From contig CACZBK010000009.1 in the NCBI GenBank assembly GCA_902779395.1, forward strand, positions 108,705 to 172,704: a stretch of 64,000 nucleotides of DNA, written 5' to 3'. The translations under genes were made by a program, and so were the position numbers. Source of the stretch: an uncultured Lachnospiraceae bacterium (GTDB lineage: Bacteria > Bacillota > Clostridia > Lachnospirales > Lachnospiraceae). This document shows, one piece after another, positions 28,056-56,127 of this stretch. Below the pieces are notes generated by a model that saw nothing but the letters and a program-made list of their open reading frames with translations, had not been told where the DNA came from and did no database searches. Each line of letters opens with the position of its first letter. Positions within the stretch are counted from its first letter, which is position 1.

Positions 28056-28084
28056 TTTACATTTGGAATTGAAACTGTTATCAT
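28056..28084 (+). promoter_or_regulatory. Promoter of the structured RNA
   Basis: TTTACA (28056-28061), 17 bases, then TATCAT (28079-28084). Transcription would start near 28091-28093, exactly where the first helix of the RNA begins (28094). That agreement supports the promoter although the -10 box is imperfect. The bases from 27995 to 28055 hold nothing else I can recognise. Confidence 0.6.
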
Positions 28085-28091
28085 AAAATAT

Positions 28092-28384
28092 ATCGTCGGC
28101 AGCTGATCGGGTTTACTCCTTCGGTGGACCGGGAGGTCACGGGTCAGATTCCCGTCGGTTTCTCCGGAAACCGTAGCTCAGAGAAAGAGCGCCCGGATGG
28201 ATAATCCGGTAATATCGCCGGCGAAAAGGCCATAGCTGACAATGCTTACTTCATGTCTTTGAAAAGTGTTGTGATAACATGGCCGCCACACTGCCGGCAG
28301 CTATCTGCGTTTACTTCGCGATCCGATATGGATGGGCGAAAGCCCGCCATATACTTTTAACGCAGAAATATCGCCGGTTTTTTT
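28092..28384 (+). ncRNA. Structured RNA: three tandem modules, one carrying a permuted tRNA-like cloverleaf
   Basis: Three modules share the same plan: helix P1, internal loop AGCU[GA/AU] facing a seven-base loop ending AUAWC, helix P2, then UACUYC. Module 1 has P1 28094-28100/28217-28223 and P2 28108-28113/28203-28208. Module 2 has P1 28228-28233/28279-28284 and P2 28240-28246/28265-28271. Module 3 has P1 28294-28298/28373-28377 and P2 28305-28311/28359-28365, and contains a GAAA-capped hairpin at 28327-28351. In module 1 the distal arm (28129-28196) is a complete tRNA cloverleaf in circularly permuted order. Module 3 is followed by seven T residues (28378-28384), so its P1 doubles as an intrinsic terminator. 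It is either an independent RNA or the leader of the lipoprotein gene 18 bases on. I do not recognise a known riboswitch or RNA family. Confidence 0.75.
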
Positions 28385-55698: not shown

Positions 55699-55761
55699 TT
55701 TATTTTCCTCCTAAAAATCTTAAGTATTCAAATTGTTATTATTATTGATAAAAACTGCTCC

Positions 55762-55896
55762 GTTGCTACGCAACTCCCGCAATTCCAACATACATTCGGA
55801 ATCCGCTTCGATTTCCTACGGATATCTTGCTGCTTCCTCATGTATGTTAGGTCTTCAAGGTCAGCGTTTATTCCATGCAGGCATGGAAAACACTGA
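55762..55896 (-). other. Structured intergenic RNA between the two small glycyl genes
   Basis: The 213-base gap 55699-55911 holds three stem-loops: GTTGC-TAC-GCAAC (55762-55774); AACATACAT with ATGTATGTT (55787-55795 and 55840-55848) enclosing ATCCG/CGGAT; and a long, nearly perfect stem at 55861-55896 with CCATGC/GCATGG at its core. None has a terminator T-run on the minus strand. They may stabilise or process the mRNA so that the last gene is expressed at a different level. Confidence 0.55.
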
Positions 55897-55911
55897 CTTT
55901 GAATCCCTTTA

Positions 55912-56127
55912 TCACTCATAATCATCAAGTCCCTGATGAAGGGTAGGAACGGAACATGCCAGAGGCGTACGGCTGCAGTCTGTACAGCCCATGGTCTCCA
56001 CTTCCTTTTTCGCGGAAGCTTCATCATCCACGTTTACATTCACATGGCCTACGCCCTTGGAGAAACCTCCGTCAAGCTGTGCCACGAGATCCTGTATCAT
56101 CTGATCCTCTGTCATCTGATCTGCCAT
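55912..56127 (-). CDS. Small Cys-rich protein resembling the start of the glycyl-radical domain
   Basis: A 71-residue protein with a good RBS (AAGGAG). Residues about 11-33 (QDLVAQLDGGFSKGVGHVNV) align with the separate glycyl-radical subunit ([20 protein letters not shown]). However, the RVSGYAV radical motif is missing. It is replaced by a segment with three cysteines, MGCTDCSRTPLACSVPTL. It lies 54 bases after pflB and is in the same operon. It could be a metal- or thiol-based accessory factor for the split enzyme. A remnant of duplication is the main alternative. Confidence 0.7.
   Translation of the reverse strand: MADQMTEDQMIQDLVAQLDGGFSKGVGHVNVNVDDEASAKKEVETMGCTDCSRTPLACSVPTLHQGLDDYE

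What the first reader, a model, noticed from the sequence alone, without database searches (positions are those of the whole stretch)
28129..28196. Complete tRNA cloverleaf in circularly permuted order, acceptor stem capped by a UCCG tetraloop
Read in order, the bases give: anticodon 3' strand CCGGG, variable AGGTC, T-arm ACGGG-TCAGATT-CCCGT, acceptor 3' strand CGGTTTC, TCCG, acceptor 5' strand GAAACCG, T8-A9, D-arm GCTC-AGAGAAA-GAGC, G26, anticodon 5' strand CCCGG. All four stems have canonical lengths (7, 4, 5, 5) and every pair is Watson-Crick. The sequence strongly resembles a bacterial tRNA-Arg, so descent from a tRNA is likely. The c(UNCG)g cap closes the acceptor and the anticodon end opens into module 1, so it cannot be aminoacylated. 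It may serve as a tRNA mimic, for example for a synthetase, RNase P, tRNA-modifying enzyme or the ribosome.
Basis: partly seen in the sequence, partly recalled or inferred. Interest (0 to 1): 0.93.

Follow-up and report, generated by a model that had tools for sequence, protein, structure and literature searches.

The report
Ro-less Y RNA with permuted tRNA
The sequence encodes a three-part RNA whose first part folds like a tRNA cut open and re-joined in a different order, and in its relatives this RNA sits beside a little-studied protein that may take the place of the usual Y-RNA partner Ro60.

Summary
The cloverleaf at 28129-28196 is real and not chance: it is the only perfect permuted cloverleaf in the window, and 12 shuffles give none. 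It caps the first of three tandem modules (28093-28378), each with two stems around an AGCUR/RAUA-type internal loop and UUACU opening the cap.

In 34 relatives 97.8% of pair cells hold and 30 of 35 pairs change on both sides, so the structure is selected.

A permuted tRNA domain is a known mark of bacterial Y RNA (YrlA). But RF02553 scores only 34 bits (gathering score 69), and no Ro60/TROVE gene was found in this genome or 23 others.

Instead, relatives lie beside a ~690-aa protein of the MXAN_6230/SCO0854 superfamily: 69 of 81 loci by motif, 74 with a covariance model, phage contigs included. In 397 family genomes, RNA matches of 70 bits or more occur in 8, all protein carriers. Here RNA and protein gene are unlinked, so trans action is likely. 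The same architecture accompanies true Ro60 in other clostridia.

Best reading: a Y-RNA-like RNP with a different protein partner. Transcription, binding and function are untested.

The parts
28056..28084 (+). Promoter-like site TTTACA-17-TATCAT with TG before the -10
   Evidence: 10 of 12 consensus letters; 4 such sites in 551 bases against 1.4 in shuffles, so a consensus match only
28093..28224 (+). Module 1: outer stem, AGCUG/AAUAUC internal loop, inner stem, cap opening with UUACU and holding the permuted tRNA
   Evidence: R1 110.1 bits (the window is in R1's training set)
28129..28196 (+). Permuted tRNA cloverleaf: anticodon 3' strand, variable, T-arm, acceptor hairpin with UCCG loop, U8-A9, D-arm, anticodon 5' strand
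28228..28284 (+). Module 2: AGCUG/GAUAAC internal loop, plain cap opening with UUACUUC
28293..28378 (+). Module 3: AGCUA/AAUATC internal loop (AAUAUC in RNA), hairpin cap opening with UUACUUC
28378..28384 (+). Run of seven T directly after the module 3 stem, possible terminator
   Evidence: read; the terminator scan reports no terminator-like site in this stretch

Best explanation
The locus encodes a stand-alone, multi-module Y-RNA-like noncoding RNA. Shown by sequence and covariation: three tandem modules with a common two-stem core and conserved loop letters, the first carrying a permuted tRNA domain; in relatives the RNA gene lies beside a gene of one protein family. Inferred: each core is a docking site for one copy of this protein (MXAN_6230/SCO0854 superfamily, possibly with a TerD-like C-terminus), which holds the place that Ro60 holds in classical Y RNPs; the tRNA mimic is the effector arm that recruits or blocks a tRNA-binding factor (a nuclease, modifying enzyme or ligase), so that the particle steers RNA decay or repair, perhaps when tRNAs are cut in conflict between phage and bacterium. 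In this genome the RNA acts in trans, since the protein gene lies on another contig.
For: Structure: 34 permuted modules, 35 pairs, 97.8% of 1104 cells paired (shuffled mean 76.5%; slid partners 36-47%), 30 pairs changed on both sides, 0 of 500 shuffles; acceptor 98.7%, anticodon stem 93.2% paired. 40 plain modules: 96.2% paired, covariation score reached by 0 of 500 shuffles. Association: motif within 700 nt upstream of the protein in 69 of 81 loci, against 10 matches in 2.40 Mb of other strand-bases of the loci; five more loci by R1. Genomes: R1 at 70 bits or more in 8 of 397, all among the 10 protein carriers (Fisher p 3e-15). Phages: 8 of 9 viral contigs have the motif near the protein, two pairs of them looking alike; Rhodococcus phage Weasels2, whose protein is 28.8% identical over 35% of the query, has three tandem modules, the middle one with a permuted tRNA. 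TROVE: 0 of 24 genomes, while Pfam TROVE scores 4e-17 to 9e-37 on the proteins beside R1-found RNAs in two other clostridial families. Own genome: RNA on C9, protein on C35; no RNA found beside the protein.
Against: No transcript, binding or structure data; the fold prediction never finished. 12 of 81 loci lack the motif; 7 of these also lack a full-length R1 match, though one of the 7 (L177) has a wider-spaced motif. R1 was trained on RNAs taken from beside the protein; 4 of the 8 strong genomes are in its training set; the cut-off was chosen after seeing the gap from 70.7 to 55.7 bits; related genomes are not independent. Modules in A3 and A4 were chosen for closable outer and inner stems, so those helices are partly selected (the four cloverleaf stems were not). 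In A4 the count of pairs with a change on both sides does not beat shuffles (183 of 500 reach it). In the class sample of 341 genomes, R1 and the protein meet only in G000; the other carrier, G678, is not among the R1 matches at 1e-6 and shows only a 31.5-bit module. G393 and G079 have 52-56-bit matches with neither partner found nearby (G079 was not tested for TROVE). RtcB-like genes flank only 5 of 89 loci.
Confidence: 0.68

Rival explanations
1. The RNA is a cis-acting leader of the protein gene: the modules bind the protein and attenuate its own expression, and the tRNA-like cap is a sensor in the leader.
For: The RNA lies directly upstream of the protein in 69 of 81 loci, and a T-run of at least 4 follows the last module in 23 of 69 loci against 10 of 63 other modules.
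Against: In the window's own genome the two genes are on different contigs; in G227, G275 and phage Weasels2 the RNA is downstream of the protein gene. TATAAT occurs exactly within 30 nt upstream of the first module in 18 of 68 loci against 3.0 in shuffles, suggesting an own promoter.
Confidence: 0.12
2. It is a classical YrlA whose Ro60 gene is missing from the assembly or too diverged to be seen.
For: Same permuted tRNA domain as YrlA; the assembly is 97% complete, not 100%; closely similar RNA architecture occurs beside true Ro60 in families f55 and f10.
Against: TROVE was found in none of 24 genomes, the partner protein shows no profile similarity to TROVE (hhalign probability 0.3%), and the RNA tracks that protein.
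Confidence: 0.08
3. The RNA is mainly a decoy: its tRNA mimic soaks up an anticodon nuclease or a tRNA-binding factor of phage or host, and the protein only stabilises it.
For: Varied tRNA caps (permuted, normal order, class II) and presence in phages; a competitive-inhibitor role was proposed for YrlA (PMC7790460, passage).
Against: Permuted caps lack an anticodon loop, and 85 of 133 modules have no tRNA-like cap.
Confidence: 0.1
4. It is a decayed remnant of tRNA genes without function.
For: Two ordinary tRNA genes lie 160-520 bases upstream.
Against: Covariation in all six helices of the structure and the shared module letters in loci from other genomes.
Confidence: 0.02

Closest known systems
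YrlA (Y RNA-like A), Rfam RF02553, partner Rsr/Ro60 (TROVE)
   Same: Long stem with a protein-docking site plus a tRNA-like domain with T, acceptor and D arms (PMC8394870, passages; order of the arms seen in the RF02553 alignment). In some bacteria near RNA-repair genes (PMC7790460, passages). A multi-module form occurs beside true Ro60 in L234-L238.
   Different: Scores 34 bits against a gathering score of 69; no Ro60 gene found; AGCUA/RAUAUC core; two further modules in tandem; caps exchangeable.
MXAN_6230/SCO0854 family RING domain protein (NCBIfam NF041916), for the partner
   Same: The partner matches over residues 289-613 with 94.6 bits, E 4e-27; a profile built from partner and distant members finds relatives from Streptomyces, Variovorax, Vibrio and phages (ten of those were in the profile).
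   Different: Far below the family cut-off of 600 bits; no RING match seen in the Lachnospiraceae members, while Streptomyces and Variovorax members have one.
Permuted tmRNA (RF04321)
   Same: A circularly permuted tRNA-like RNA; it lies beside the present kind of RNA in two alphaproteobacterial phages.
   Different: A separate RNA family (messenger-like tag part recalled); the window RNA has no RF04321 match at E up to 10.
Permuted tRNA genes of algae and archaea (recalled)
   Same: 3' half encoded before the 5' half.
   Different: Those are processed into normal tRNAs (recalled); here the acceptor stem is a closed hairpin and the anticodon end runs into the module.

Membership tests
YrlA (RF02553) | Score at or above the Rfam gathering cut-off | tested here: not met
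   34.3 of 69 bits. The five Ro60-linked clostridial RNAs also stay at 42-51 bits, so this cut-off excludes them too.
YrlA (RF02553) | Permuted tRNA-like domain: T-arm, acceptor-like hairpin, D-arm | tested here: met
YrlA (RF02553) | Genome encodes the partner Ro60/Rsr (TROVE) | tested here: not met
   0 of 1 own genome, 0 of 23 others
YrlA (RF02553) | Binds Ro60 and tethers PNPase (RYPER) | not testable with these tools
   needs biochemistry
MXAN_6230/SCO0854 family (NF041916), partner protein | Score above the curated cut-off | tested here: not met
   94.6 of 600 bits
MXAN_6230/SCO0854 family (NF041916), partner protein | RING domain | tested here: not met
   no Pfam match in P0001; no RING among the 25 shown of 37 Pfam families over 59 members
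TerD (PF02342), C-terminus of the partner | Significant domain match | tested here: inconclusive
   3 of 59 members, best E 0.0027; a Vibrio relative is annotated TerD family protein

The most novel reading that the evidence does not exclude
A second class of Y RNP exists in bacteria and phages: a multi-module RNA with exchangeable caps (permuted tRNA, normal-order tRNA, T-arm only, plain loop) is bound by MXAN_6230/SCO0854-superfamily proteins instead of Ro60. tRNAs have been captured into it more than once and in two topologies, so that tRNA mimicry itself is what selection keeps.
Probability: 0.55. Interest if true: 0.9.

Novelty: new variant of a known kind. Interest (0 to 1): 0.8.

Why it matters
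Ro60 and Y RNAs have been treated as one pair (my reading of the passages seen). If the same tRNA-mimic RNA architecture works with an unrelated protein, and phages carry it, then the RNA is the constant element and the protein the exchangeable one. It also gives a largely unstudied protein superfamily, seen here in several bacterial phyla and in phages, a testable RNA partner.

Tried and rejected
RF02553 alone as evidence: rejected, since it matches 378 of 397 genomes at E up to 1, and 3 of 16 inspected loci are tandem tRNA genes. The class hit G523 reads as two tandem tRNA genes. Descent from one tRNA of the genome: best agreement 45 of 68 and 48 of 64, with best isotypes over the 34 caps scattered over ten amino acids. 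RtcB as a fixed third component: 5 of 89 loci; the name RtcB rests on recall of the sequence, not on a family search. Homology of the partner to TROVE: none by hhalign. PDB relatives of the partner: none convincing. Y-like RNA beside the relatives in L208 (LpeD), L209 (WXIN), L214 (Variovorax), L215 (Niallia), L216, L217 (Streptomyces), L218 (Vibrio), L219 (Mycolicibacterium): none with R1 or RF02553. Dropped rows: G331 as protein carrier (E 4e-4, in a frame that does not look related). Of 38 permuted caps 34 went into A3; L119 and L135 (near-duplicates) and both L138 modules (longer, one with a class II variable arm) were left out. 25 of 158 motif hits could not be closed by pairing. Literature: no paper on this pair in searches for SCO0854/MXAN_6230 (0 papers), YrlA, RtcB/TROVE/TerD, bacterial Y RNA/Rsr, Ro60/Firmicutes, circularly permuted tRNA; of most listed papers I saw only the listing. 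PMC11109978 has none of five terms searched in it. Six look-ups of key papers found them not held, so absence from print is not shown.

Full report
Observation. ARAGORN and Rfam at gathering scores do not report it. Rfam in e-value mode gives YrlA (RF02553), 34.3 bits over 28093-28227. That is weak evidence by itself: RF02553 matches 378 of 397 family genomes at E up to 1, and 3 of the 16 top loci that I looked at are tandem tRNA genes, which read as a permuted tRNA.

The unit. Reading outward, 28093-28378 holds three tandem modules. Each has an outer stem, a 5' internal loop AGCUG or AGCUA facing AAUAUC or GAUAAC, an inner 7-bp stem, and a cap opening with UUACU. Module 1 carries the permuted tRNA, module 2 a plain loop, module 3 a hairpin followed by seven T. 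A promoter-like site lies just upstream; the terminator scan finds no terminator-like site.

Relatives and their neighbour. RF02553 hits without tRNA genes led to loci with the same core letters, and the gene after the RNA looked alike in several of them, which the protein searches confirm. The protein P0001 has no Pfam match; NCBIfam gives NF041916 at 94.6 bits over residues 289-613, under its cut-off of 600. With an 11-sequence alignment (A1) 175 relatives were found in genome contigs, of which 80 were returned, and 9 in viral contigs. Of the 81 loci with at least 300 bases upstream, 69 have the motif within 700 bases; the same pattern occurs 10 times in the remaining 2.40 Mb of strand-bases. 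R1 adds L147, L154, L159, L164 and L165, two of them downstream and one 2.7 kb upstream, making 74 of 81.

Caps. Of 158 motif hits 133 could be closed by pairing. By script and one hand correction (L134), 38 are permuted tRNAs, 2 are tRNAs in normal order (L171 and one module of L176), 8 were called T-arm only (two of these, L137 and L183, look like false calls), and 85 are plain. One L138 cap resembles a tRNA-Leu with a long variable arm in permuted order (61 matching letters). Two topologies and scattered best-matching isotypes point to repeated capture of tRNAs; this is inference.

Covariation. On a MAFFT alignment of 34 permuted modules 97.8% of 1104 cells pair, 30 of 35 pairs change on both sides, and none of 500 shuffles reaches any of the five measures; sliding the partners drops pairing to 36-47%. 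Forty plain modules give 96.2%, although there the number of pairs with a change on both sides does not exceed shuffles (183 of 500 reach it). Closable outer and inner stems were a selection criterion for the modules; the T, acceptor, D and anticodon stems were not.

Co-occurrence. In 397 family genomes 11 match the protein, of which I drop G331. R1 reaches 70 bits in 8 genomes, all carriers. Four of them (G000, G036, G193, G327) are in R1's training set, judged by equal contig lengths. The next scores are 55.7 (G393), 51.6 (G079) and 47.8 (G144), then 47.5 for tandem tRNA genes. In the stretches fetched for the other two carriers, G106 and G409, only a plain module was seen. Fisher p is 3e-15, with a cut-off chosen after the fact and related genomes counted as independent. 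In the genus 6 of 35 genomes have the protein; BLAST finds the RNA in G000 and G012, and motif or R1 searches in G017 and, as one motif, G016. TROVE is absent from all 24 genomes tested. In a class sample of 341 genomes the protein occurs in 2, G000 and G678. R1 at 1e-6 finds 7 genomes: G000, G523 (tandem tRNAs), and five with 53-67 bits whose next gene is a TROVE protein. Four of these five have AGUGCAG in place of AGCUA, the fifth a UGUAG-like strand; plain modules keep UUACUUC, permuted ones UUACUUC, AUACUUC or CUACUUC. G678 shows only a 31.5-bit module beside the protein (L227). So one RNA architecture occurs with two proteins that hhalign does not relate (probability 0.3%).

Depth. tblastn finds protein relatives in 9 phage and 20 plasmid records. 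Rhodococcus phage Weasels2 has three tandem modules after the protein gene, the middle one with a permuted tRNA (68 bits). Rhodobacter phage RcXuper and Ruegeria phage RpAliso have permuted-tRNA matches upstream of it (51.8; 47.2 and 40.4 bits), beside a permuted tmRNA. G227 has three modules downstream of a distant protein. In eight other fetched relatives no such RNA was found.

Trans action. In the window's genome the protein gene is on contig C35, after a NUDIX-like frame (named by eye), with no module found beside it; the RNA is on C9 before a lipoprotein-like gene. A purely cis role does not fit this genome.

Known background. YrlA is described as a stem that tethers Rsr plus a tRNA-like domain that binds PNPase and is modified by DusA and TruB (PMC8394870, passages). 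The Salmonella operon joins rsr, yrl and rtcBA, and the tRNA-like domain was proposed as a possible competitive inhibitor of an anticodon nuclease (PMC7790460, passages). Some jumbo phages carry TROVE proteins, which in cells work with a tRNA-like partner (PMC7824862, passages). I found no paper on the present pair; the main YrlA papers could not be read.

Conclusion. The finding is real and larger than reported: a Y-RNA-like, probably trans-acting RNA with a non-Ro partner candidate. Membership in YrlA fails on score and on partner, but it probably works like one. Transcription, binding and function remain to be shown.

Noticed in passing
window 55746-55914, - strand: Clostridiales-1 RNA (RF01699), 90.4 bits.
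   Followed up: no
L171 (module 598-729) and L176 (7027-7162 and 7424-7558): Module caps that are tRNAs in normal order, closed on the acceptor stem; ARAGORN reports them as tRNAs, those of L176 with odd anticodon loops.
   Followed up: partly
L210 1126-1428 and L213 463-684: Permuted tmRNA matches directly beside permuted-tRNA Y-like RNAs in Rhodobacter phage RcXuper and Ruegeria phage RpAliso.
   Followed up: no
G393 C12, G079 C1, G144 C42, G053 C9 (L195, L196, L198, L200): R1 matches of 42-56 bits (RF02553 40-46 bits in L195, L198 and L200) without a partner-family gene in the fetched surroundings; no TROVE in G053, G144 and G393, G079 not tested.
   Followed up: partly
L214: A Variovorax plasmid encodes a RING-bearing relative of the partner protein close to a gene annotated rtcR, the RNA-repair activator.
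   Followed up: no
L104, L105, L106, L111, L118, L162: Later modules whose cap is a lone T-arm.
   Followed up: partly
L010/L074 (G125): The partner gene is in pieces next to an intact-looking RNA, with transposase-like frames (named by eye) around it.
   Followed up: no
L183, L184, L185, L186 (viral contigs): The partner gene has early in-frame stops under the standard code although the match covers its whole length; a recoded stop or a broken gene are both possible.
   Followed up: no
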